This document shows positions 34,431-54,254 of a DNA stretch of 64,000 bases, piece after piece (position 1 is the stretch's first letter; each line of letters starts with the position of its first letter). The stretch comes from Nephrocerus scutellatus (lineage: Eukaryota; Arthropoda; Insecta; Diptera; Pipunculidae). Below the pieces are notes generated by a model, which saw only the letters and a list, made by a program, of their open reading frames with translations, did no database searches and had not been told where the DNA came from. A program made the translations under genes and the position numbers. Location: NCBI GenBank assembly GCA_947095585.1, contig OX352762.1, positions 120,186,930-120,250,929 on the forward strand, in the 5' to 3' direction.

Positions 34431-36315
34431 CTTCTCTTTATGTCCTGTATCCCCTTATGGGTCCTAGGGCCTCTACTACGCCTACGCGCCATCGCGTGCG
34501 GTTCCTGGCAATGAGCTTCAGCTCTCTCCAACTCTTCCCCAATTGCCGTGCCTCCTCCTCAACTGTTCTGCGCCATGTATTTCTCGGACGACCCGTTCTT
34601 CTACCATCCTGAGATAACGGGTTCCATTGCATTGCGTAGTTTGCTATGGAACTGTCGCCTTTTCGGAGTGTATGACCAATCCACTGCCACTTCCGTCGTT
34701 GGATGGTTGTGCCTATTGGTTCCTGACCCGTTCTCTGGTAAAGATGTTCGTTTGAGATACGGTTAGGCCAGAAAACCCTTAAGATGTTCCGTAGGCACCT
34801 ATTTACAAATGTTTGTAATCTTTTTGTGATAGTAGCGGTCACCTTCCAAGTGCTGCACCCATACAACAGCACAGATTCAACATTTGAGCGGAACAGTCGC
34901 AGCTTGGTGTTTAAGCTGATCGCATTGCTTCGCCATATCATGGACATCATTCCAAACACCGATTTTGCTTTGCCGATTCGGTTGGCAATGTCCTGTTCGG
35001 TTCCACCTTCGGTCGAGACAATACTCCCAAGATATTGGAAACTCTCTACTCTCTCTACCGGCTGTCCAGCAATGTTAACATGAGTAACTGAGTTAGTGCC
35101 GAGGTTGATGATTTTGGTTTTGGCAGTATTAATCTTCAAACCCGCAACATTTGCCTCCCTCTCCACATTTGTTGTCATTTGGTGCAGCTCCATAATTCTA
35201 TGTGAGAGTAAACAAACGTCGTCAGCGTAATCCAGATGTTTGAGTTGAGATGTAAGAGTCCAACGAATTCCTCCGTTTCCAGTAGATAAAGCTGCGCGAA
35301 GTACATCGCTAATCACCAACAAAAAAAGTATCGGCGATAGAATGCAACCTTGTCGTACCCCACTTAGGATCTCGAATTCCTCTGACAGCTTTCCTCTATG
35401 CAGCACATGACATTTAGAGCCATCATAGGTTGCTTTAATAATAGCTATTAGTTTATCGGGTATACCTCTCCTGCGCAAGGCGAGCCAGATAAACTGTCTG
35501 TTGACACTGTCAAACGCCTTCTCAAAATCGATGAACAGCAGGTTCAGTGGTGACCGGAATTCAACGCACTGTTCAATAATGATCCGCAGGGTGTTTATGT
35601 GGTCTACACAGGAGGATCCAGTGCGGAAACCTGCTTGTTCGGCATCGAGTGTATCTTCCAGATGTTCCTTAATACGTTCAAGTACTACTTTGGCTATTAC
35701 TTTTGCAACTGCAGGGAGAACGCAAATGCCTCTCCAGTTTTCGCACTCCATAAGACTACCTTTTTTAGGGAGCTTGACAATCATTCCCTTCTTCCATTCT
35801 TCGGGGAAACTTTCTACCTCCCAAGCTCTCTCTACAAGAGGATATAAAAGCTCTGCTGATGTCGTTGGAGCTGCACGCAGAAGCTCTGCGGGTATACCAT
35901 CTAGTCCTACCGACTTGTTGTTCTTTAGTGCGTTAATCGCGGTAGCGATCTCGTCTTTACTGGGAGTTGAGGTGCGAATTCGGGAAATTGTTACTTCCGG
36001 CATTTCCGCTTGATTTAGGTGCATATCGTTAGCAAATACACGGTTAAGGACCGTAGAGAAATGCTCCTTCCATCGCTTGAGCTGATCCTCATCTGAAACT
36101 AGTACGGTACCATCTAGGCCTTTCACCGGATGTTGGCTAGAGCGGTGACCACCTGTCAGCTCTTTGGTGATTCTGTAAAAGGTTCTGCTATCGCACCGAC
36201 TCGCTGCTTCCTCTGCTTCTGAGGCCAGGTTGTTAATATAGTTACGCTTGTCACGTCTTACACTACGCTGCACCTCTCTCATTTTTCTTCGATACATGGA
36301 CTCTAGCTCGCTCCT
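34431..36315 (-). mobile_element. 5'-truncated RTE-like LINE with 13-bp target duplication
   Basis: Bounded by the direct repeat TTGGACATTGTTT at 34418-34430 and 36316-36328. The 3' end lies only 7 nt past the ORF stop and has no poly(A), as expected for RTE-like elements. The 5' end lacks the endonuclease, typical of incomplete target-primed reverse transcription. The open frame continues to the 5' boundary. It is the youngest-looking LINE in the window. Confidence 0.88.
34438..36297 (-). CDS. RTE-like LINE reverse transcriptase ORF, intact RT, 619 codons
   Basis: Codes for the RT and C-terminal part of a non-LTR polyprotein that copies its own RNA at a nicked chromosomal target. Domains: N-terminal basic linker (1-110), RT with LKNNKSVGLDGIPAELL (about 147), GFRTGSSCVDHINTL (about 224), LLFIDFEKAFDSVNR (about 252), GVRQGCILSPILF (about 316), YADDVCLLS (about 355) and FQYLGSIVS (about 420), then a C-terminal region with RRKWQWIGHTLRKG and GRPRNTWRR. 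No frameshift or stop. The AP-endonuclease is missing by 5' truncation, so this copy could not mobilise alone. The chosen ATG is merely the first Met; upstream codons are also open. Confidence 0.88.
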   Translation of the reverse strand: MYRRKMREVQRSVRRDKRNYINNLASEAEEAASRCDSRTFYRITKELTGGHRSSQHPVKGLDGTVLVSDEDQLKRWKEHFSTVLNRVFANDMHLNQAEMPEVTISRIRTSTPSKDEIATAINALKNNKSVGLDGIPAELLRAAPTTSAELLYPLVERAWEVESFPEEWKKGMIVKLPKKGSLMECENWRGICVLPAVAKVIAKVVLERIKEHLEDTLDAEQAGFRTGSSCVDHINTLRIIIEQCVEFRSPLNLLFIDFEKAFDSVNRQFIWLALRRRGIPDKLIAIIKATYDGSKCHVLHRGKLSEEFEILSGVRQGCILSPILFLLVISDVLRAALSTGNGGIRWTLTSQLKHLDYADDVCLLSHRIMELHQMTTNVEREANVAGLKINTAKTKIINLGTNSVTHVNIAGQPVERVESFQYLGSIVSTEGGTEQDIANRIGKAKSVFGMMSMIWRSNAISLNTKLRLFRSNVESVLLYGCSTWKVTATITKRLQTFVNRCLRNILRVFWPNRISNEHLYQRTGQEPIGTTIQRRKWQWIGHTLRKGDSSIANYAMQWNPLSQDGRRTGRPRNTWRRTVEEEARQLGKSWRELKLIARNRTRWRVGVVEALGPIRGYRT

Positions 36316-36612
36316 TTGGACATTGTTTGATTTCGTATATTAAGTATATTTTAATTCTTTTATCTTCAGATATTATACCCCTAATATAATTATTTTGTGT
36401 TAAAGTACCTTCGATGTCATAAGCTATTGAACACGATATCATTTAAAACTGTTACACGGAAAGGCTTTTTATGAGTTAATGCGCTTACCCCAATTTGCAT
36501 GACTTTTTTGTATAAATCGTGCAATAAGGAGTTAATATTGGTTTCGATATTGTCCCTATGTCTTTTTCAAACTACATATTCTTCAAGTAAACCTCTTCAA
36601 ATTTATAGTCAC

Positions 36613-37024: not shown

Positions 37025-37610
37025 TAATCCTGTTGTCACTGGCAAAAACTGTTGTCATCGGAGATACACATGTGTTTCAAATTTTAAGAAAATCAGGTTA
37101 GTTATAAAATAAATTTAATGGCTACACCTCAGGCCCCAGGGCCCGATCACTCCAAAAAATTAACAAAAAGTTTTGTTCATCAATGATACACGTGTGTTTA
37201 AAATTTGAAGAAAATGGGGTTTATTTTTAAAAAAATTCTATGGGCACAACTAGGACCTCAGGGCCCGATCATTCAAAAAATTTTACAAAAAGTTTTGTTT
37301 TGTTCTTTAGAGGTAATGTGTTTAAAGTTTGAAGAAGATCAGGCTAATTTTTAAAAAAATATATTGGTATACCACTCGGGCCGCTGGGCGCTGAGCCCAT
37401 TCACTCCAAAAATTTTACAAAAAGTTTGGTCTATCAGTGATACATATGTGTTTAAAAATTGAAGAAAATCGGGTAAAATTTGGGCATCCCTCGTGCCTAA
37501 ATTTTAACAAAATGTGTTGTCACCGGAAATACACATGTGTGCAAAATTTCAATAAAATCGTGCTTTGGGAAGTGGGTTAAAAATTGATCACAAGCCATCC
37601 AGCCACGGGC
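37025..37610. repeat. tandem array, about five units of about 115 bp
   Basis: Each unit has GTTGTC/TTGTTC, a GATACACATGTGTTT-like motif, an A-rich TTTGAAGAAAATCGGGTT block, and a CCTCAGGGCCCGATCA-like block. Units at about 37040, 37175, 37300, 37430 and 37520 diverge from each other. Single-unit relatives occur at 16985-17240 and 41070-41120. Not recognised as a named family. Confidence 0.65.
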
Positions 37611-42760: not shown

Positions 42761-43608
42761 TGTATGAGTTAGTAGCTTTGCTAAGCGCTGGTATTATTTA
42801 GGGCTCTGGTTTGTCTCTGACACTCTTTATCCTTTTTATTTAATTTGTTACTTTTTATCATATTTATTTTTCACCGACGACAGCACCTTCAACGTTTAAT
42901 ATAACATCACATTTTAATCGTTTGATTGATTAATATATGGTCTTAATTTTTAGTCACATGCATTGTTTCTGAGTTCTCAGAACTTTTGTTGGTTTTCTAC
43001 AGTAGCGTATGAGATAAAACAGCAGTGGGTTCATAATATCTGTTATAGATGATAGAAGAGATAGTGATCATATCTAGTATCTGATACAGATAGAGCAGTG
43101 CTCAGTGGAAAGCATTTTAAAATTTAGAAAGTTTCGGTAGAAAAAGCCGGTACAGACGAGAATTGTTTACTCGTATCTATAAAATCGCTTTAAATTTAAG
43201 AGCGCTTGATATTTCTACCGGTAGAAAGATTTTTTGCAAGATGTCAGGGTTAATCGTCTTTTCCTCGGGGGTAGGAGTGCTTTACTCAATTTTCATGAGT
43301 TCCGTTCCTAAGTCAAATGAGTTTTTCTTTAGTTTTTGATGAAGTACAAGTATCTTACTCGTATGTACTATGGATAACATTTATACTTTGTATCAATAGC
43401 TTCATTCTGAATTTTGTTAAAATGTTTTGAAGCAAAACTTAATTCTTAAAATATATAATAGTGCAAAAGCTAAATCATTCTAACGCTCGCTTAATGGTAA
43501 TTTTCCACTTCAGCAGAGCTCTGCATCAAAGCTACAAATAATTCTACTTAACTCTTCCACTCAACCAGCTGTTCAGCTTTGCCATCATTTCTTACGTTTT
43601 ACCTTAAG
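42761..43608. other. no gene recognised; left flank of the endogenous retrovirus
   Basis: AT-rich with no ORF or repeat of note. TAAG at 43605-43608 is the left copy of the provirus target duplication. Confidence 0.5.
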
Positions 43609-44171
43609 TGTTGTGACCACACACAACTCCTTAGACATGTGCTACGCACATTTCATAATATCCTTCCTTTCCCAAACATGTGCTATGCACATTTCCTATT
43701 TTTTCTAATGTTACATTATCCATAATGTAACATTACCCATTTTTCCAATAACCCAAATCCATTATCCTAAATCCGACGACCCACCGCGGCGTCTACAATT
43801 CCTATTATTCTAAATCCGACGACCCACCGCGGCGTCTTCAATCTATCCTTTTTTTCCCAAATCCTAAATCGGATACCGACGACCCACCGCGGCGTCTACA
43901 TTTTCTATTGTCAATTGCATTCTCGCATTCGCTTGTTCGTACAACGACTGCGAGAATGGTGATGCGTAAACATGCAGGTCAACAGAACGGTTCAGTTTGA
44001 CCTGCACTAAAAAATCAAGTCAAAGGCATGGAGGAAGAAATGGAACGATGGATGAGGCAGTCAATTTCAAACATCCGATTAGGCAAGTTGCCTAGCGGTC
44101 AGATCATTAAACACTTTATATAAACTAATCCATCTGTGTTTTATTTTTCGATATATTACCACGACCCAACA
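43609..44171 (+). repeat. 5' LTR, 563 bp
   Basis: TGTTGTGACC...CGACCCAACA. It contains two copies of ACATGTGCTA(C/T)GCACATTT, a palindrome at 43709-43732, three copies of CGACGACCCACCGCGGCGTC starting at 43774, 43817 and 43877, perfect 10-bp stems at 43918/43949 and 43973/43997, and a TATATAAA-like box near 44117. Confidence 0.95.
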
Positions 44172-44173
44172 TT

Positions 44174-44192
44174 TGGTGGCAGCGGTGGGATT
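44174..44192 (+). other. primer binding site, tRNA-Leu type
   Basis: TGGTGGCAGCGGTGGGATT begins 2 nt after the LTR. It is complementary to the 3' end (with CCA) that I recall for fly tRNA-Leu of the AAG type, which would prime minus-strand DNA synthesis. Confidence 0.7.
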
Positions 44193-44461
44193 ACTAGGTA
44201 AAGCATCTGCCTAGTATCCCGATTTTTTTTTTCTTTTTTTTAATGTTTTTAAACGCGAATTGTGATTAGTGAGACAACAAAATTAAATGTGTGATTGTGT
44301 CGTAGTAAAATTTTATAATCCGTGGTTTTTATATATGCGTAATTAAAGCTGTTTTTAAATATGCAATGAGCTTTCCATAATTTCTCAACGTTCGAGATTA
44401 TTTATAACTTTTCACGATGAATAATTTGTGCCGAATTTTTTTTTGAATACAAAGAAAGCAC

Positions 44462-44737
44462 ATGGCAAATACCATGTTTTTCCATAACTACGGAAATCAG
44501 AATTACGAAGACAATACTACGCTAAATTCAACCATGATTTGCGATCTACCAACCATAACCACATCCGACAAGCTAAAGCAAGCGAGACTGAACACCGATG
44601 CAGTAGCTACAGTAATAGCAACAACAATGGCCCGGAAATTCATCAATCAATATCATCAATTGTCATCAACATCATTACCAGCATCCAGCACATCACAGAG
44701 GGCAACATCCAACAACAACAAAAACATGAATTTGTAA
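44462..44737 (+). CDS. leader ORF, 91 codons, role uncertain
   Basis: It lies in the 1.1-kb leader between primer site and gag. It starts ATG at 44462, is rich in Asn/Thr/Ser/Gln, has no known domain, and stops TAA at 44735-44737. The last codons overlap a donor-like TTT|GTAAGA at 44733/44734. It may be an upstream ORF or the first exon of a spliced env mRNA; see the finding on splicing. Confidence 0.4.
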   Translation: MANTMFFHNYGNQNYEDNTTLNSTMICDLPTITTSDKLKQARLNTDAVATVIATTMARKFINQYHQLSSTSLPASSTSQRATSNNNKNMNL

Positions 44738-45285
44738 GAATTCTATTTTCTTTTTTTTTCTTAAACTTTATGAATTTTTATTTAAAAAATATTTCAATCT
44801 TTATCTAATTTAAAATATATAAAAAGACAAATAAAATCTTATAAAAGATGAACTGAAGGAAGTCAAAGAAAAAAAATTAAGAGTTTATTTCTATAGTAGT
44901 TAACCATTTCCTAACACATATCTTATGTGCTAAATAAAAAAGTTCACTTATAAATATTTTTCTATCCATGTCCAAAACATATATTTCATGTAAAAAAAAA
45001 AGTTTGAACACAATTAACCGAAACGATAACAAAATCTTTACAAAAATTCAAATAAATATACATATAGAAATTTTTTAGTAAAACATAAGTATTCACGAAT
45101 GAGGCAAACATAACAAAAGAGACTTTCCCTTATTCTAAACCCATCAAATCCAACCCCTTTTCTCCGAATTTTTTTTTATTTTATGGTAGTAATTGATTTC
45201 CGAAGTTCCGAGAGAAGACTCAAAGTTAATTGACAATCCGATAGTAGTTAAAGCTCCCCAAGTATCTTTAGATAAGAAATTAAAA

Positions 45286-46263
45286 ATGACTACAAGTCGT
45301 TTTAACCCCTCACACGCCATCAAGCTAATTCCTGAGTTTGATGGATTAGCCAAAAACTTAGATCGATTCATTCAACTAGTTGACCTGCAGTCAAAAAAAG
45401 CGATTGACGATGCAGACAAATTAGAATTAGTTGACATAGTGAAGTCAAAGTTAACTGGCAGAGCCTACAATGTTGTAATAAAATACAACGATTATAACGG
45501 ATGGCCAGAACTTAAAGACGCACTAGTAAAAAATTTTAGAAAATGTCGATCGGTTCAGGTGATTCAGACAGAAATGTTTCAATTTAAGCAAGGCTACAGG
45601 GAAACAGTTGCTTCATACGCGGAAAGAGCCAATGCGTTGTGCGATGAATTAAACAACGCAAACGCAAACACTGAGGATGATTCATCCAATAAAGCAATCC
45701 GTTCGCTAAACAGCGCAATGATGCTGAATAGTTTTTGCAATGGTTTAAATCCACAAATAAAACTTCTTGTTAAAAGTGCACGATGTAAAGAGTTCGACGA
45801 AGCAGTCGAAATAGCGATGGAAGAAGAAAAACTTCTTGCATCCACAAGTAATCGGTACCAAAACCAAAATAACATGTACTGTAAACACTGCAAAACGAAA
45901 ACTCACAATACCAGTGAATGCCGCACAATCAGAAATTATAATTTCAGCCCCGGTGACGTTAGGTTTTTAAATAACACAAACCACAGACCAAATATACAAA
46001 CCACGCAACCTTTTGTAAATAGGCCTACTCTAAACTACACTCAACCATTAACAAATAGGTCTGGTGTAGATACAATCCGCAGTGACATAATTTGTAAGTA
46101 CTGTAGAAACCAAGGTCACTCTATAGAACAATGCCGAAAAAGAGTTTTTAATAACAATAGGAACTCCGGTAACGAAAATAATTATTCGAATCAGGGAAAC
46201 TCTCAGCGACCTGGCCCGACAAGCACTCGGAGTCAGGTAAAAGACATCAAACCTTGTGCGTAA
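45286..46263 (+). CDS. gag: Gag polyprotein (325 residues)
   Basis: Structural capsid/nucleocapsid precursor. I chose the ATG at 45286 (context TTAAAA-ATG-ACT); the frame is open further upstream without an ATG. Residues 10-190 form a capsid-like helical region (HAIKLIPEFDGLAKNLDRF, MFQFKQGYRETVASYAERA). Two CX2CX4HX4C zinc knuckles are at 199-212 (CKHCKTKTHNTSEC) and 270-283 (CKYCRNQGHSIEQC). The tail is Asn/Arg-rich. The TAA at 46261-46263 lies directly before the hexanucleotide tract. Pol is in the -1 frame and overlaps. Confidence 0.92.
   Translation: MTTSRFNPSHAIKLIPEFDGLAKNLDRFIQLVDLQSKKAIDDADKLELVDIVKSKLTGRAYNVVIKYNDYNGWPELKDALVKNFRKCRSVQVIQTEMFQFKQGYRETVASYAERANALCDELNNANANTEDDSSNKAIRSLNSAMMLNSFCNGLNPQIKLLVKSARCKEFDEAVEIAMEEEKLLASTSNRYQNQNNMYCKHCKTKTHNTSECRTIRNYNFSPGDVRFLNNTNHRPNIQTTQPFVNRPTLNYTQPLTNRSGVDTIRSDIICKYCRNQGHSIEQCRKRVFNNNRNSGNENNYSNQGNSQRPGPTSTRSQVKDIKPCA
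46194..46238 (+). promoter_or_regulatory. programmed -1 frameshift signal for Gag-Pol
   Basis: Heptamer G GGA AAC at 46194-46200, in the correct gag phase (X XXY YYZ), an 8-nt spacer, and a hairpin at 46209-46238 with two helices, ACCTG/CAGGT and CCGA/TCGG, closing a CAAGCAC loop. The -1 frame is open from here into pol. Confidence 0.75.
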
Positions 46264-49200
46264 ATCAAAATCAAAATCAAAATCAAAATCAAAATCAAAA
46301 TCAAAATCAAAATCAAAATCAATATCAAAATCAAAATCAAAATCAAAATCAAAATCAAAATCAAAATCAAAATCAAAATCAAAATCAAAATCAAAATCAA
46401 AATCAAAATCAAAATCAAAATCAAAATCAAAATCAAAATCAAAATCAATATCAAAATCAAAATCAAAATCAAAATCAAAATCAAAATCAAAATCAAAATC
46501 AAAATCAAAATCAAAATCAAAATCAAAATCAAAATCAAAATCAAAATCAAAATCAAAATCAAAATCAAAATCAAAATCAAAATCAAAATCAAAATCAAAA
46601 TCAAAATCAAAATCAAAATCAAAATCAAAATCAAAATCAAAATCAAAATCAAAATCAAAATCAAAATCAAAATCAAAATCAAAATCAAAATCAAAATCAA
46701 AATCAAAATCAAAATCAAAATCAAAATCAAAATCAAAATCAAAATCAAAATCAAAATCAAAATCAAAATCAAAATCAAAATCAAAATCAAAATCAAAATC
46801 AAAATCAAAATCAAAATCAAAATCAAAATCAAAATCAAAATCAAAATCAAAATCAAAATCAAAATCAAAATCAAAATCAAAATCAAAATCAAAATCAAAA
46901 TCAAAATCAAAATCAAAATCAAAATCAAAATCAAAATCAAAATCAAAATCAAAATCAAAATCAAAATCAAAATCAAAATCGAAAAACGAATTCTCAAAAT
47001 CAAATTCAAATCGAGCTGTCTCAAAAATATAAATCCGATAGTTTAAATCGAACTATTCCACATGCAAAGTCTGAGAAAGTTCCTGGCCATAGAATGCCTA
47101 ACAGAGACTCAAATCCGGAAAAAGTCCGAAAGCAAACAATAAAACAAAATATTCTGCTAAATGAACACCACCATCAAAATCGAAGCCAAAGCCAAATCCG
47201 AAGGCTACATCAATTTCTAACCAGAAGTCTAGATACTGAATCAAGTTCAGCTAAACAAATAGCCAATATCTCATCTATAAACAGAGCATCTACTTTTAAA
47301 AGCGAGATAAAAATAAAGTCTCAGGAATCAAAGGCTAAATCTAATATTATGCTGCTCGATACGGGGGCAAGCCTTAGTTTAATAAAACTCGGAACATTAA
47401 AACTAAATGCCGAGGTAAACTTAAAAAATGTTATTGAACTGACAGGTATAGGCAAAACGTCTACGTCAACGCTAGGTACAATACTACTAAACATCGAAAT
47501 TACACCAGGTCAACATCTCAAACATCCTTTTCACATAGTACCACAAAACTTCCCTATTACGCAAGATGGAATCATAGGTGAAGATTTTTTTAGAAAATTT
47601 AATGCGATAGTGGATTACAATGACAATATATTTGTATACCACTACAAAAACAGACAATTTACAGTAGACTTCAGCAACGAATGGAAGACCTTAACAATTC
47701 CAGCTAGAACTGAAAAGTGGGTAAAATATGGACCAGTAAAAGAGAAAATGGAACAAATATATTTTTCTCAGGAAATAGCTCCACGCGTGTATTCGGCATC
47801 AACGATAACAGCACCCAAAGACGGTTACGTATTCATATCCATTTTAAATACCAACAACGAAGATGTTAGTATAAAAAACTTAAGCCTTAAATCTGAAAAC
47901 ATGGACCATTACACAGTGTATAACCTAAACTCGATATCAACCGACCAAGTAGTCGAAGAAAGATTAGAAAAACTTAAAACAGAATTAAATCTTATTCACT
48001 TAAATCTAGAAGAAAAGCAATCCATAGAGGAAATCTGCAGAAATTTTAATCACTTATTCTTTATTGAAGGCGACAAATTAAGTACCACATCAGGAATAAA
48101 GCATTCCATTAAGACAGAAAACACTGTTCCTGCAAACATACGCCCATATCGCCTAGCAGAAATCCACAAACAGGAGATAAGAAAACAAGTTAATAAAATG
48201 CTTCAAGATGACGTAATTAGACCCAGTACTAGTCCGTGGAATGCGCCACTTCTGGTAGTCCCCAAAAAAGGAGATCAAAAATGGAGAGTCGTAATAGACT
48301 ACCGAAAATTAAATGAGGCTACAATTCCAGACGCATACCCAATCCCCAATATCGAAGACATTCTTGGGCAACTTGGAGACTCCAAGTACTTTACTACGCT
48401 AGATCTGGTGGATGGTTTCCACCAAATCGAAATTACTGAAGAGGATAAAGAAAAAACAGCGTTTAGTACTACCAACGGTCATTTCGAGTTCAACAGAATG
48501 CCGTTTGGTTTACGAAATGCTCCGCCAACATTCCAGAGACTTATGAACGTTGTTCTCTCTGGATTGCAAGGTTTTATGTGTTTAGTATATCTTGACGACA
48601 TTGTGATTTACGGGAAAAATTTGCAAGATCACAACAAGAAGCTTATTGAAGTTTTTAAAGCTCTAGACAAATTCAATCTAAAAATCAAATTATCTAAATG
48701 CAAATTCCTTCAAACAGAAGTTATGTATTTAGGACACGTCATTACAGCAGACGGTGTTAAACCAGATCCCGATAAGATTGCAGCGATTAATAATATCGAA
48801 ATTCCTAAAACCCAAAAACAAATAAAATCATTTCTAGGTCTGTCCGGGTATTACCGAAAATTTATTAAAAATTATTCACAAATTGCAAATCCGCTGAATA
48901 AACTTCTTCGTAAAGACGTACCTTTTAAGTGGGACGCTTTTTGTGACGAATCCTTTAGAAAACTAAAGAAGTCTATAGTTCAACCACCTATACTCATTTA
49001 CCCAAATTTTGCAAAAACTTTTTATATCACTTCCGACGCTAGCAACGAAGCTATAGGCGCGGTATTATCCCAGCGAGATTCAAACGATAATGATCTACCA
49101 ATAGCGTTTGCCAGTAGAATACTAAACAAGGCCGAAAAAAACTATTCTACTATCGAGAAGGAAGCTCTTGCAGTAGTCTGGGCAGTCACACACTTTAGAC

Positions 49201-50531
49201 CATACGTTTTCGGACGCCACTTTGAAGTCATTACCGACCATAAGCCACTGGTATGGATGTTCAACCTGAAGGATCCTTCTTCGAGAATAATGCGCTGGCG
49301 CATAAAACTAGAGGAGTATGACTTCACGGTCTCGCATAAAGCGGGACATCTAAATACGAATGCGGATGCTTTGTCGCGTTTAAATGTACCAGAAATTAAT
49401 GTGGTAACCCGTAGTTGTAGCAAGATGACGCCAGGCGAACCTGAGCAGGACAATCATGTTACAGAAATCACAGACCCAGTGAAAATAAAGCAAATACTGT
49501 TTGAATTTCACGACACACCCTTAGGAGGTCATCAAGGAGTTAAACGCACACTAAAGCGTATCAGAAAGGCGTACAAATGGAAAAATATGTATGTAGACAT
49601 AAAGAAATACATCATGTCTTGTGAACTATGCCAGAAGAATAAAGTATATACACGCAACAAAATCCCTATGGTCATCACTACAACAGCGAAAGTTCCATTC
49701 GAAAGAATAGCTCTTGATATAGTGGGACCACTGCCAATTACTGAAAACAATAACAAATATATACTTACATTTCAGGATGATTTAACGAAATTCGTCCAAG
49801 CAATAGCTATACCCAACCAAGAAGCCAGAACGGTGGCTGAAGCACTGATAAAGAAAATAGTTTGCACCTTTGGAATACCACAAACAATACTTACGGATCA
49901 AGGAACGAATTTCACAAGTGAATTATTCAAAAATATTTGCAAAACACTAAAGATTCATAAAATACAAACAAGCCCATACCATCCTCAGTCAAATGGCTCA
50001 CTCGAAAGATCGCATAGAACTTTAGGCGACTATCTAAGAAATTATGCAAGTAAAGATCAAGCAAATTGGGATCAGTATATGGATTATGCGATATTTTGCT
50101 ATAATACCACCTCACATTCAAGCACAAATTACAGCCCATTTGAAGCCCTATACGGATTCGAAGCTCCAATTCCCTCAACTCTTAACAGAAGCGTACAGCC
50201 TACATACAACTACGATGATTATGTCGCTGAGATAAAAGAAAAAATGCAAACCGGCTATGAAATAATTCGTAATAACCAAATAAAAGCGAAAGAAAAGTCA
50301 AAAACCTATTACGATCAAAACTGCAAAGAAACTAACTTTAACGTAGGAGACAAAGTTCTACTAGAAATAAAAAATAGGGTTAACAAAAAACTTACCCCCA
50401 TCTTCGAAGGACCCTACGAAATCGTAGAAATTCTATCCCCAGAGAATTCTAGAATTAAAATTGGTAGGAAGGAAAAAGTCATACACAATAATTTAATTAA
50501 ACCATACACACAAGCGCACACAAATACATAA
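46254..50531 (+). CDS. pol: Pol polyprotein: protease, RT, RNase H, integrase (with Q/N tract)
   Basis: Made as Gag-Pol by -1 frameshifting; the frame opens near 46187 (first codon after slippage at 46200), so 46254 is only the start of the clear open part. Numbered from 46254: Q/N tract 4-241; aspartic protease LLDTGAS with Asp about 369 and GEDFF about 448; RT with VVIDYRKLNEATIPDAYP, MPFGLRNAP and YLDD at 779-782; RNase H with TSDAS (Asp about 928), IEKEALAVVWAV and TDHKPL; integrase with an HHCC zinc region (HxxxxGGHQG, CELCQKN), the catalytic triad Asp 1155, Asp 1215, Glu 1251 (D-35-E spacing) and a GPY/F-like FEGPYEIV near the end. No chromodomain. No inactivating change seen. Confidence 0.95.
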   Translation: MCVNQNQNQNQNQNQNQNQNQNQYQNQNQNQNQNQNQNQNQNQNQNQNQNQNQNQNQNQNQNQNQYQNQNQNQNQNQNQNQNQNQNQNQNQNQNQNQNQNQNQNQNQNQNQNQNQNQNQNQNQNQNQNQNQNQNQNQNQNQNQNQNQNQNQNQNQNQNQNQNQNQNQNQNQNQNQNQNQNQNQNQNQNQNQNQNQNQNQNQNQNQNQNQNQNQNQNQNQNQNQNQNQNQNQNQNQNQNQNQNRKTNSQNQIQIELSQKYKSDSLNRTIPHAKSEKVPGHRMPNRDSNPEKVRKQTIKQNILLNEHHHQNRSQSQIRRLHQFLTRSLDTESSSAKQIANISSINRASTFKSEIKIKSQESKAKSNIMLLDTGASLSLIKLGTLKLNAEVNLKNVIELTGIGKTSTSTLGTILLNIEITPGQHLKHPFHIVPQNFPITQDGIIGEDFFRKFNAIVDYNDNIFVYHYKNRQFTVDFSNEWKTLTIPARTEKWVKYGPVKEKMEQIYFSQEIAPRVYSASTITAPKDGYVFISILNTNNEDVSIKNLSLKSENMDHYTVYNLNSISTDQVVEERLEKLKTELNLIHLNLEEKQSIEEICRNFNHLFFIEGDKLSTTSGIKHSIKTENTVPANIRPYRLAEIHKQEIRKQVNKMLQDDVIRPSTSPWNAPLLVVPKKGDQKWRVVIDYRKLNEATIPDAYPIPNIEDILGQLGDSKYFTTLDLVDGFHQIEITEEDKEKTAFSTTNGHFEFNRMPFGLRNAPPTFQRLMNVVLSGLQGFMCLVYLDDIVIYGKNLQDHNKKLIEVFKALDKFNLKIKLSKCKFLQTEVMYLGHVITADGVKPDPDKIAAINNIEIPKTQKQIKSFLGLSGYYRKFIKNYSQIANPLNKLLRKDVPFKWDAFCDESFRKLKKSIVQPPILIYPNFAKTFYITSDASNEAIGAVLSQRDSNDNDLPIAFASRILNKAEKNYSTIEKEALAVVWAVTHFRPYVFGRHFEVITDHKPLVWMFNLKDPSSRIMRWRIKLEEYDFTVSHKAGHLNTNADALSRLNVPEINVVTRSCSKMTPGEPEQDNHVTEITDPVKIKQILFEFHDTPLGGHQGVKRTLKRIRKAYKWKNMYVDIKKYIMSCELCQKNKVYTRNKIPMVITTTAKVPFERIALDIVGPLPITENNNKYILTFQDDLTKFVQAIAIPNQEARTVAEALIKKIVCTFGIPQTILTDQGTNFTSELFKNICKTLKIHKIQTSPYHPQSNGSLERSHRTLGDYLRNYASKDQANWDQYMDYAIFCYNTTSHSSTNYSPFEALYGFEAPIPSTLNRSVQPTYNYDDYVAEIKEKMQTGYEIIRNNQIKAKEKSKTYYDQNCKETNFNVGDKVLLEIKNRVNKKLTPIFEGPYEIVEILSPENSRIKIGRKEKVIHNNLIKPYTQAHTNT
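46263..46976 (+). repeat. hexanucleotide expansion (AATCAA)119 coding for Asn-Gln in pol
   Basis: 714 bp, 119 units, with only two variant units (AATCAATATCAA context at 46321-46326 and 46447-46452, 126 bp apart). In the pol frame it gives 238 residues of alternating Asn and Gln with two Tyr replacements. In other frames it gives alternating Lys-Ser or, on the minus strand, Ile-Leu; those are artefacts. Confidence 0.97.
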
Positions 50532-50540
50532 ACACTTAAC

Positions 50541-52343
50541 ATGACACACACAAAATACCAAAATATTAAAACACGAATTTTCTGTGTTTTCAATTTCAGT
50601 TACTTAATCCTTGTTTGCGCACTAAGTGCGGCTGCAGCGCAGCTACATCAACAACTACCACTAAACACTACAGGTGTTTATTTGGAACCCATAGGCGTAC
50701 TCGAAAAATCCTTCACAAAATGGACATTCCTATTCTATTTTAATAATTCAATAACAAATACCAATGCCAAAACCTTAAAGAAAAACATTAACACGCTCTC
50801 GGATCTATGCGAGAATACGACAAAAGAGTATCCTATAGGCCGCTGTAAAATGACCCTACAAATGCTGAAACACTCTCTTAACGAGGTACAGCAAAATAAT
50901 AGGATGCTGGATGGTATCCTATTGGGGACAAGACTTACTAAAAGAAGTACGACAATTACAAACGGAGGTTTATTTAACGGTATAGGTTATATCCAGAAAT
51001 TCCTTTTCGGAACAATGGACTCTCAAGACGCTGTAAAGATAGAAAACGCATTACAAACCCTCTCGGAAAACCAAAATAGCCTCTACCACATGACAAAAGA
51101 ACAATTGACTATAATATCAAACGTTTTTGATGCACTTAATGACACGACACGTAACATAAATAATAACTTTAATTTAATAACCAAAGAAATTAAAGAAAAT
51201 TCAGCTAAGCTGGTAAATCTCACGAACTTTGAAAAAATACTTCACAGTTTTGACGAAATGTCATACCTTATATCCATATGCGCTTTCCAAATTTTGGCAA
51301 AACAAGCAGAATTACTTGACACTTTGCAAGAGGCAAAATTAGGAAGATTAGACAGCAGATTTTTAAATTCAGACATTTTTATTGCTACGTTAAACCAGAT
51401 ACAGGCCGAACTCCCGCACAACGTAAGGTTTCCACAGAAAATTTCCAGGTTAAATCTACCTATAATCAATTCACTAGCAACAACGACACCCATTTATGTA
51501 AATGGAAATTTTATGATTCAGGTCAGCATACCGATGGTTAACGAAGAATTTAATCTATTTAGAATTACCCCTCTCCCCACAAAATATCTAGAGCACACAT
51601 ATCGATACGTCTCAACTGGTAGCGAACTCGTTGCCGTTAACGAGAACTACAGGAGATACATATTTTTGAGCATTAATGATTTGGAAAAATGTATCACAAG
51701 CGAACCAGAACATTTCGTGTGCCAACAAAATTTCGTTATACATAATTATGACATGAATAATTGCATAATACAGCTAATATCAGGAAACCCAAATCCACAG
51801 ATTTGTGAATATCGAGTATTCCAACTCAAACACGAGTTATGGTTCACGTTGAAGAACAAAAACTCATGGCTATATGTTATGCCAGAACCAAAAAACGTAC
51901 GAATCATATGTGGCGATACTCCACACACAATAAAATTATCAGACAGCGGAATCCTTAAAATAAAGCCATACTGCAAGGCAGTAACGAACGAAATTTACTT
52001 GCAGGCGTCAAATGACATTTACAACAAGGTCCCTATTCTCTACCATTTCCAGGCCATACCCGTAATTGAAAAAATCGATATCCCCAGTAACCTATCCCAA
52101 ATCTCATCCCACATAATACATGTTGAAAAGTTAAATTTGGATAAATTCAGTATTAACGTAAAAGATTTAGTAAGAAAAGATACATCATTTATAACAATAA
52201 AACATGAAACTTTATATATTTCGACCTCTACCCTCATTGCCATATGTCTAATTTGCATATTAATACATGTAATAAAGAAATACTTTAAAATAAAAGTCTC
52301 GGTGAACAAAGAAGCAGGAGAAAATGTAGCAGAAAATCCATAA
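50541..52343 (+). CDS. env: Envelope glycoprotein (600 residues)
   Basis: Errantivirus Env, homologous in fold class to baculovirus F fusion proteins. It begins 9 nt after the pol stop, normally translated from a spliced subgenomic RNA. A hydrophobic leader spans about 13-34, a furin-type site RLTKR lies at 131-135, and a Gly-rich GGLFNGIGYIQKFLFGTMD segment follows about 8 residues on, as in known gypsy Env proteins. The ectodomain has N-glycosylation sequons and paired Cys, a membrane anchor lies at about 560-582, and the cytoplasmic tail is short and basic. Uninterrupted. A splice acceptor-like TTTTCAATTTCAG sits at 50587-50599, inside the leader. Confidence 0.93.
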   Translation: MTHTKYQNIKTRIFCVFNFSYLILVCALSAAAAQLHQQLPLNTTGVYLEPIGVLEKSFTKWTFLFYFNNSITNTNAKTLKKNINTLSDLCENTTKEYPIGRCKMTLQMLKHSLNEVQQNNRMLDGILLGTRLTKRSTTITNGGLFNGIGYIQKFLFGTMDSQDAVKIENALQTLSENQNSLYHMTKEQLTIISNVFDALNDTTRNINNNFNLITKEIKENSAKLVNLTNFEKILHSFDEMSYLISICAFQILAKQAELLDTLQEAKLGRLDSRFLNSDIFIATLNQIQAELPHNVRFPQKISRLNLPIINSLATTTPIYVNGNFMIQVSIPMVNEEFNLFRITPLPTKYLEHTYRYVSTGSELVAVNENYRRYIFLSINDLEKCITSEPEHFVCQQNFVIHNYDMNNCIIQLISGNPNPQICEYRVFQLKHELWFTLKNKNSWLYVMPEPKNVRIICGDTPHTIKLSDSGILKIKPYCKAVTNEIYLQASNDIYNKVPILYHFQAIPVIEKIDIPSNLSQISSHIIHVEKLNLDKFSINVKDLVRKDTSFITIKHETLYISTSTLIAICLICILIHVIKKYFKIKVSVNKEAGENVAENP

Positions 52344-52533
52344 AAAAAAAAAAATTTCAAAATAACATCTCAAAAAAAAAATTTCCAATTTGTAATCATT
52401 TATATATATATTAAAAGAAAATACATATATATACAATCATTTCTTATCAATAAAAAAAAAAAGAAATACAATATTATTATTATCATTTCAAACAAATTAT
52501 AAATATAAAATTATAAAACAAATAAATAATGTC

Positions 52534-52575
<42 letters not shown>

Positions 52576-52757
52576 ATAAAATATTGTACACGTGTATAAG
52601 CGTGCTAGGCAAACAAAAATTGTTTAATAAATATCTATTTCATATCGTATAGCAGAATCACTAAACTACATTCATCGTTCATTGACTCCTACATGCCATA
52701 TGCCGAAAGTCTTCTCTCCTAACGTCGCGCGTCTTTCGTATTCTAAGGGGGGAGGAG
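52344..52757 (+). other. env-3' LTR spacer with 39-nt poly(A) run
   Basis: A-rich. A run of 39 A occupies 52535-52573. It ends in a polypurine tract AAGGGGGGAGGAG (52745-52757), the plus-strand primer, directly against the 3' LTR. Confidence 0.85.
52745..52757 (+). other. polypurine tract
   Basis: AAGGGGGGAGGAG immediately before TGTTG of the 3' LTR. Confidence 0.9.
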
Positions 52758-53320
52758 TGTTGTGACCACACACAACTCCTTAGACATGTGCTACGCACAT
52801 TTCATAATATCCTTCCTTTCCCAAACATGTGCTATGCACATTTCCTATTTTTTCTAATGTTACATTATCCATAATGTAACATTACCCATTTTTCCAATAA
52901 CCCAAATCCATTATCCTAAATCCGACGACCCACCGCGGCGTCTACAATTCCTATTATTCTAAATCCGACGACCCACCGCGGCGTCTTCAATCTATCCTTT
53001 TTTTCCCAAATCCTAAATCGGATACCGACGACCCACCGCGGCGTCTACATTTTCTATTGTCAATTGCATTCTCGCATTCGCTTGTTCGTACAACGACTGC
53101 GAGAATGGTGATGCGTAAACATGCAGGTCAACAGAACGGTTCAGTTTGACCTGCACTAAAAAATCAAGTCAAAGGCATGGAGGAAGAAATGGAACGATGG
53201 ATGAGGCAGTCAATTTCAAACATCCGATTAGGCAAGTTGCCTAGCGGTCAGATCATTAAACACTTTATATAAACTAATCCATCTGTGTTTTATTTTTCGA
53301 TATATTACCACGACCCAACA
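52758..53320 (+). repeat. 3' LTR, 563 bp
   Basis: Same length and, on reading, the same sequence as the 5' LTR, followed by TAAG at 53321-53324. Confidence 0.95.
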
Positions 53321-54254
53321 TAAGTCAACAAATCGGCGGTTTGGCCAGTTTTTCGCTTCCAGCAAAAACATAATAATTTTTAAAACAAATTACCCAGCAG
53401 ATCTGCTTGAAAATTAAAATAAGAAAATCCCATCAAACTTGGGACTTTACGACTTGGTAACTGGCTATGACTAAGGTTATTTAAGTGGAAAATTATGCGA
53501 ATTACAAAGCAAATGCGATAAATGTCCACGCAATACCGGCACGAATACGACTTTATATCAGACGCACTCTGCACTAACAGTCGACGGTTGTAGTGTTTGT
53601 TCGTTGTTGTTGGAAGAAGTCTTCGTCCATTCGCATTCACTCTGCCACAGTTGCATACGCGAATTGTACGCAAAAGTCGAATTAGCATTTTGCTTTCTAA
53701 ATGGCCAATTCTTTAGTATGTCTGATGGGGATTCACGCAAGCTAGGAATGTGTCTTGTATGTTAATCGAACTTTGGACGTCCTGTAAAATCAACATCATC
53801 ATCATCATCATTTATTGATGCATCGTAGCATTAGATATCACAATGGGACACTGGGCGATCTGCTTTACATACTTCTGTAATTGTCTGCTTGTGGATCGGT
53901 CAGTAAAATTGATTAAAGTATCAAAGGATACCAACCATTCAAGCATAGACCAACGGGCGTACATTGACCGCAAAGTATTCCCATCAAAGATGTGAACAGA
54001 ATTTTACCTTTGTTTTACTTACGATGGAAATGATATCATTTCAGCTTGAATTTTCTACAAAAGGTTTAATGCTTGTGTACTGAGGTCTAAGGAGGGTGAA
54101 ATTTTTGGAATTATTTACATTACCAGAGTAAAAAATCTGGTGCCCGGGTAAGAAAAGTCGTAAATAACAACTATAAAAATATGTTCTTTTGTTTATGAAG
54201 TCACTTTGAACATTTTAAGAACCTTTTTTTAAAGGAGTTTTGTTTCTTGTGTGT
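53321..54254. other. right flank of the provirus, no gene recognised
   Basis: Contains an ATC microsatellite (about 53789-53812). Two overlapping minus-strand open stretches around 53380-53740 have GTTGTT/CAACAA-rich, exon-like composition but no domain; could be a 5' UTR exon or chance. Confidence 0.4.

What the first reader, a model, noticed from the sequence alone, without database searches (positions are those of the whole stretch)
46254..46980. A 238-residue Asn-Gln repeat inside the Gag-Pol of an apparently intact endogenous retrovirus
Seen: 119 copies of AATCAA starting two bases into the gag stop codon and running in the pol frame without a stop to the protease region. Only two units vary, and they lie exactly 126 bp (21 units) apart, which suggests internal duplication. 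Known: retroviral pre-protease regions vary, but a Q/N tract this long would be extraordinary; Q/N tracts can drive prion-like assembly. Inference: either a recent slippage expansion tolerated because it sits in a linker and is made only on frameshifted molecules, or a functional condensate/assembly module. Because gag terminates just before it, only the minor Gag-Pol product would carry the tract. I know of no described errantivirus with this.
Basis: partly seen in the sequence, partly recalled or inferred. Interest (0 to 1): 0.88.

Follow-up and report, generated by a model that had tools for sequence, protein, structure and literature searches.

The report
Virus family with elastic NQ tract
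A young insect-type endogenous retrovirus family carries a six-letter DNA repeat inside its polymerase gene that spells asparagine-glutamine over and over, and copies that are otherwise almost identical have widely different repeat lengths, which makes it an unusual natural case of a runaway repeat spreading inside a mobile gene.

Summary
A clean provirus with gag, pol and env (identical LTRs, TAAG target duplication) has 119 AATCAA-type units in the pol frame, between a -1 frameshift signal and the protease. It is no lone artefact: the tract's 3' junction occurs at 84 places in the same genome. All 63 young copies carry 29-123 units, in frame; 43 with identical flanks show 34 lengths, and the eight checked at their LTRs each have their own target duplication. 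Twenty-one older places carry from no repeat to 100 units, and arrays there are mostly purer than their flanks predict, so the array also turns over as chromosomal DNA. Six further array sites all adjoin remnants of this family (one by a short match only). Nine lineage changes suggest purifying selection on pol, so the frame through the tract is probably used. Best reading: a hypervariable, frame-neutral hexanucleotide microsatellite in a disordered Gag-Pol-only linker, driven by slippage, repeat exchange and, by inference, reverse-transcriptase template switching; tolerated rather than needed. A selected N/Q assembly module is not excluded: no young copy is short, although reverse transcriptases delete direct repeats readily. 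About 19% of the array hits were not located.

The parts
43605..43608 (.). 4-bp target-site duplication TAAG, left
43609..44171 (+). 5' LTR, TGTTG...CAACA, 563 bp, identical to the 3' LTR
44174..44192 (+). likely tRNA primer binding site (TGGTGGCAGCGGTGGGATT); leucine tRNA by recall, not tested
45193..46263 (+). gag stop-to-stop frame (first ATG 45286; stop TAA 46261-46263); Retrotrans_gag and two CCHC knuckles
46194..46200 (+). -1 slippery heptamer G GGA AAC in gag phase
46209..46238 (+). stem-loop 8 nt downstream of the heptamer (predicted)
46182..50531 (+). pol open frame, -1 relative to gag
46263..46976 (+). (AATCAA)119 tract, 238 residues (NQ)n with two YQ
46977..47309 (+). S/N/Q/K-rich linker between tract and protease domain
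47310..47603 (+). retroviral protease RVP (DTG at 47358)
48258..48743 (+). reverse transcriptase RVT_1 (YLDD at 48588)
48930..49319 (+). RNase H-like domains
49482..49985 (+). integrase: H2C2 zinc domain and rve core
50532..52343 (+). env frame, Baculo_F family; first ATG 50541
52745..52757 (+). polypurine tract before the 3' LTR (by eye)
52758..53320 (+). 3' LTR
53321..53324 (.). 4-bp target-site duplication TAAG, right

Best explanation
The tract is an in-frame hexanucleotide microsatellite that has expanded, and keeps changing length, inside a recently active errantivirus-type (Ty3/gypsy with env) family. Because the unit is two codons long, every gain or loss keeps pol in frame. Because it lies after the gag stop, behind a -1 frameshift, only the minor Gag-Pol product carries it, in a low-complexity linker between nucleocapsid and protease, so copies with 29 to 123 units could all spread. 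Shown in the assembly: family-wide presence, in-frame length hypervariability among copies with separate target duplications, and length change and unexpected purity of arrays in old copies (a chromosomal process). Supported by few changes: purifying selection on pol. Inferred: that reverse-transcriptase template switching between repeat registers also changes length at each cycle, and that the (NQ)n peptide is tolerated rather than required.
For: Length: 63 of 63 young copies have 29-123 units, all of length 6n+3 before the fixed 3' flank; 43 copies with identical 480+759 bp flanks show 34 lengths, 29-123. Separate insertions: 7 young copies plus the window each have their own 4-bp duplication; 7 of 8 LTR pairs are identical, one (L035) has 1 mismatch. 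Control: the 43-bp x 2.1 tandem repeat in the LTR is unchanged in 14 of 14 LTRs of those 7 copies. DNA-level change: L072 and L073, 7.5 kb apart and sharing a 5' deletion, differ at 7 of 2,182 flank sites but have 41 and 20 units; six old-copy arrays hold 3 variant units where terminal branch lengths predict 27.7. Translated frame: where 13 older copies agree (base present in at least 8) and the window differs, 3 changes are non-synonymous and 6 synonymous, against 111 (7 of them stops) to 23 for changes private to one of these old copies, Fisher p = 0.002; GGGAAAC kept in 75 of 75 rows with an intact 5' junction. Inherited but drifting: 10 copies with TATCAA average 98.6 units, 53 without average 58.8, p = 3e-6. 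Large steps: the window copy alone has TATCAA twice, 21 units apart. Older copies with 2-4 units exist.
Against: No young copy has fewer than 29 units, which drift with deletion-prone reverse transcription would be expected to produce sometimes. The short tracts of older copies may have shrunk after insertion, so they do not prove that a short form could move. The split between chromosomal slippage and reverse-transcription change is not resolved. Lengths rest on one assembly without reads. 1,177 of 6,078 array 30-mer hits were not located. Beside L085 an old array is not pure, so homogenisation is not universal. The selection test rests on 9 lineage changes and 13 of 21 older places.
Confidence: 0.68

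Rival explanations
1. Selected assembly module: the long (NQ)n tract gives Gag-Pol a prion-like, self-associating segment that helps it join Gag assemblies or condensates; length above some threshold is favoured.
For: All 63 young copies have at least 29 units although some older members have 2-4. Reverse transcriptases remove direct repeats often (41% in a single cycle for a 110-bp repeat in an SNV vector; PMC3187697, section 2.1, read), so a pure array should tend to shrink. Ty1 Gag needs a prion-like domain (PMC10372613, passages including part of the abstract).
Against: No preferred length (29-123). Long arrays also occur in decayed copies and there even at other junctions, for example beside integrase remnants. 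The 14 variant units in young arrays all change the residue (11 N>Y, 1 N>K, 1 N>S, 1 Q>R), so no sign that the residues are conserved. In Ty1 the domain is in Gag, here only in Gag-Pol.
Confidence: 0.15
2. RNA-level role: a long unstructured A-rich stretch just after the frameshift stem tunes frameshifting, packaging or escape from silencing; the peptide is a by-product.
For: 50 units fold with 0.0 kcal/mol; the stem lies 8 nt after the heptamer and ends 24 nt before the tract.
Against: Heptamer present also in the short-tract copies with intact 5' junction, and the stem region nearly the same; no length optimum.
Confidence: 0.08
3. Purely chromosomal instability: every copy inserts with a similar length and drifts afterwards by slippage or unequal exchange; reverse transcription contributes nothing. 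(This differs from the best explanation only in its inferred step, so the two confidences overlap.)
For: Length change in the tandem pair L072/L073 and purity of arrays in old copies.
Against: Seven copies whose LTR pairs are still identical have 29, 32, 45, 72, 91, 103 and 119 units. TATCAA occurs with and without a 15-bp deletion 86 bp downstream, in all four combinations, as recombination between copies would give; repeated loss of the unit could do so too.
Confidence: 0.25
4. Assembly or sequencing artefact.
For: Long perfect arrays are hard to assemble and no reads were seen.
Against: The tract recurs in 63 of 63 young copies, with in-frame lengths, some copy-specific variant units and, in the eight checked, separate target duplications.
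Confidence: 0.02

Closest known systems
Errantiviruses / insect endogenous retroviruses (Metaviridae, gypsy group)
   Same: gag, pol in -1 frame, Baculo_F-type env, PR-RT-RNaseH-IN order, 4-bp target duplication
   Different: No (NQ)n array in the 120 pol relatives listed of 1,463 found; nucleocapsid-to-protease distance 49-208 residues in the 18 relatives where it could be measured, about 408 here
rover 5' UTR 151-bp tandem expansion in Drosophila (PMC12992720, outline and passages)
   Same: Tandem repeat whose number differs between variants of one insect ERV lineage
   Different: There untranslated, 1-4 copies of 151 bp; here coding, 29-123 copies of 6 bp
SVA elements of hominids (PMC12593883, listing and abstract start only)
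   Same: Retroelement with length-variable internal repeats
   Different: SVA is composite and non-LTR (recalled); here the repeat is in-frame in a polyprotein
Ty1 Gag prion-like domain (PMC10372613, passages)
   Same: Low-complexity, prion-like composition in a retroelement polyprotein
   Different: In Ty1 in Gag and required; here in Gag-Pol only, not shown to be needed

Membership tests
Errantivirus (env-bearing gypsy, Metaviridae) | LTRs with TG...CA ends and 4-bp target duplication | tested here: met
   window and 7 other copies
Errantivirus (env-bearing gypsy, Metaviridae) | pol with PR, RT, RNase H, IN in that order | tested here: met
Errantivirus (env-bearing gypsy, Metaviridae) | third frame coding an F-type envelope | tested here: met
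   Baculo_F, E = 6.9e-35
Errantivirus (env-bearing gypsy, Metaviridae) | sequence signals for a -1 gag-pol frameshift | tested here: met
   in-phase GGGAAAC and predicted stem; no translation data
Errantivirus (env-bearing gypsy, Metaviridae) | RT places it inside the gypsy clade | not tested
   no RT tree with named errantiviruses was built; best listed relative 52% identical, unnamed
Errantivirus (env-bearing gypsy, Metaviridae) | infectivity | not testable with these tools
   -
Prion-like domain | N/Q-rich low-complexity composition | tested here: met
   236 of 238 residues N or Q; no prion predictor was run
Prion-like domain | self-propagating or condensing behaviour | not testable with these tools
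   -
Microsatellite (hypervariable tandem repeat) | copy number varies between otherwise identical copies | tested here: met
   between copies of one family, not between alleles of one locus

The most novel reading that the evidence does not exclude
A retroviral family whose spread depends on a length-tunable N/Q assembly tract in Gag-Pol: a repeat array that reverse transcription should erase is kept at 29 or more units by selection for Gag-Pol recruitment, while its instability gives most new insertions their own variant.
Probability: 0.15. Interest if true: 0.9.

Novelty: new variant of a known kind. Interest (0 to 1): 0.62.

Why it matters
It is a natural length series of a pure (NQ)n peptide and of a pure hexanucleotide array, embedded in otherwise nearly identical, recently inserted copies. 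That makes two questions testable: how perfect arrays survive repeated reverse transcription, which in laboratory retroviral vectors deletes direct repeats, and whether a retroelement polyprotein can use or merely tolerates a prion-like tract. It also suggests a mobile element scattering one microsatellite over a genome: every AATCAA array site that I read lies in or beside sequence of this family, though 19% of the array hits were not located.

Tried and rejected
Sole defective copy: rejected, 63 of 63 young copies carry the tract. Tract from an unrelated genomic satellite: six further array sites, found by a pattern for a different left edge, all adjoin sequence like this family, L129 by one 69-bp match only; not excluded for the 1,177 of 6,078 hits not located (3,794 forward and 2,284 reverse; 4,214 accounted for; 687 in L128-L135, a lower bound because L133's array runs off its stretch). 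Relatives with NQ tracts: a search with the tract plus protease region gave 15 proteins, none with a retroelement Pfam domain; only proteins of 0.55-1.75 times the query length were candidates. N-rich relatives (P0023, P0053) and one with another tandem repeat (P0045) have no (NQ)n array. Copy pairs about 100 kb apart as segmental duplications: in three of the four pairs flanks were compared and share no similarity; both LTR edges were recognised only in the C3 pair, and the window's own pair was not compared. Dating of four older copies (L080, L083, L084, L087) failed, no LTR pair was found in the pieces fetched. Literature: ten searches, some with capped listings, showed no errantivirus with such a tract; the library lacks most subscription papers, and Chary and Hayashi 2025 (289 metazoan errantiviruses, cited in PMC13172572, passages) was not read.

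Full report
What is there. The window lies in a 613-Mb assembly of 9 contigs. At 43605-53324 is a complete-looking provirus: 563-bp LTRs with TG...CA ends, identical to each other, a TAAG target duplication, a likely primer binding site and polypurine tract, gag with two CCHC knuckles, pol with protease, RT, RNase H and integrase, and an env of the Baculo_F family. The tract is as described: 119 units at 46263-46976, 117 N, 119 Q, 2 Y.

How it is reached. Pol is in the -1 frame. Inside the overlap lies G GGA AAC at 46194-46200 in gag phase, with a predicted stem starting 8 nt downstream (46209-46238; z -2.2 and -2.6 for two stretches including the heptamer, -1.7 for the stem region alone; in the first two the heptamer itself also pairs weakly). 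The heptamer is kept in 75 of 75 rows with an intact 5' junction, two of which (L085, L086) are the same place. The other 6 of the 81 rows are L080, which has AGGAAAAC instead, and L072, L073, L078, L079 and L089, which lack the region. So the tract is expected only on Gag-Pol. All forward frames through the hexamer are open, so openness proves nothing. Better evidence is selection: over 897 bp after the tract, sites where 13 older copies agree (base present in at least 8) and the window differs are 3 non-synonymous and 6 synonymous, against 104 non-synonymous, 7 stops and 23 synonymous for changes private to one of these copies (Fisher p = 0.002). The other 8 older places were not used. This suggests that pol was translated while the lineage moved, and translation must pass the tract.

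The family. The 3' junction pattern finds 81 places with up to 3 mismatches, a second pattern 3 more. I read the tract at these. Sixty-three share the young junction and form one clade on their 3' flanks (SH-aLRT 99, quick tree, midpoint root). All 63 have 29-123 units (mean 65, median 61, 45 distinct lengths). The 21 older places have: 7 with 20-100 units (L072, L073, L080, L084, L087, L088, L125), 7 with 2-4 (L074, L075, L076, L081, L082, L083, L090), one with 7 degenerate units and beside it one longer mixed array read only in part (both in L085), one without repeat (L126), and 4 whose 5' side is deleted or unrelated (L078, L079, L089, L127). Long and short are interspersed on the tree, so expansion or contraction happened repeatedly.

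How fast. Thirty-eight copies with 1,330 identical flank bases have 29-100 units; with 480+759 bases it is 43 copies, 34 lengths, 29-123. Seven young copies examined at both LTRs, plus the window, each have their own target duplication; the LTR pairs differ at 1 of about 4,500 compared sites in all. With a fly-like mutation rate of about 3e-9 per site and generation (recalled) this means some 40,000 generations on average. The LTR's own 43-bp tandem repeat did not change in 14 of 14 LTRs, so the instability is not general. In 62 of 63 young copies pol stays open to the end of the fetched stretch, 368-510 codons from the tract start; L056 has a frame change.

How it changes. Two signs point to chromosomal DNA: the tandem pair L072/L073 (41 and 20 units, flanks 0.3% different) and the near purity of six old-copy arrays (3 variant units seen, 27.7 expected from branch lengths). 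Against that, the mixed array in L085 is not pure. Two signs point to large steps or exchange: the window copy alone has TATCAA twice, 21 units apart; and TATCAA occurs with and without a 15-bp in-frame deletion 86 bp downstream that six young copies share (only L054 has both), as recombination between copies, or repeated loss of the unit, would produce. TATCAA copies are longer (mean 98.6 of 10 against 58.8 of 53), so length is inherited with drift. Reverse transcriptases jump between direct repeats often (PMC3187697, section 2.1); I infer that this contributes.

Arrays elsewhere. Of 6,078 exact 30-mer hits, 4,214 lie in the family copies read. An edge pattern (11 hits, two of them in L080 and L055) gave six more sites, on C1, C2 and C3, holding at least 687 hits. 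All six adjoin sequence like this family at 79-95% identity: L134 in the usual place on both sides, L132 on the 3' side, L135 on the 5' side with integrase remnants after it, L131 followed by integrase and env remnants, L133 preceded by integrase remnants, and L129 followed by a 69-bp protease-region match only. So the arrays read are bound to this family, also in its old remnants, and often lie at breakpoints. 1,177 hits remain unlocated.

Function. The tract lengthens the nucleocapsid-to-protease distance from about 170 to about 408 residues; in the 18 relatives where it could be measured it is 49-208 (72 of the 120 listed relatives had both pol motifs, 18 of these a CCHC). Against a specific role: no preferred length, long arrays in decayed copies, and 14 of 14 variant units in young arrays changing the residue (TATCAA probably arose once or few times). 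Short-tract older copies also argue against need, unless they shrank after insertion. For a role: none of 63 young copies is short. I therefore prefer a tolerated runaway repeat and keep the assembly-module reading as the bold alternative.

Limits. One assembly, no reads, no expression data, organism not named by any tool. The contig sizes seen (five of 95-142 Mb, one of 27 Mb) would suit a higher fly, from recall only.

Noticed in passing
window 34438-36339 (- strand): 633-codon open frame with reverse transcriptase RVT_1 and DUF6451: a probable non-LTR retrotransposon (type by recall).
   Followed up: no
window 37063-37474: 122-bp tandem repeat, 3.3 copies, 71% matches.
   Followed up: no
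C1:60.475/60.575, C2:120.234/120.335, C3:30.296/30.397, C5:72.555/72.665 Mb: Four pairs of young copies lie 100.1, 101.4, 101.1 and 110.4 kb apart. By my own rough estimate, no call, that is more than even scatter gives; flanks of three pairs are unrelated. Post hoc; may be chance.
   Followed up: partly
P0045 (unnamed relative): An 11-residue tandem repeat (RQNINLSPTID) in its protease-RT linker: another linker repeat in a related pol.
   Followed up: no
L085, C1:61.895 Mb: Old copy with a duplicated tract junction: 7 degenerate units, then part of both flanks again, then a mixed array with AATCAT and AATCGA units.
   Followed up: partly
L114, C1:60.569 Mb: An LTR start follows directly after the 3' LTR end of copy L044: adjoining or nested copy.
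   Followed up: no
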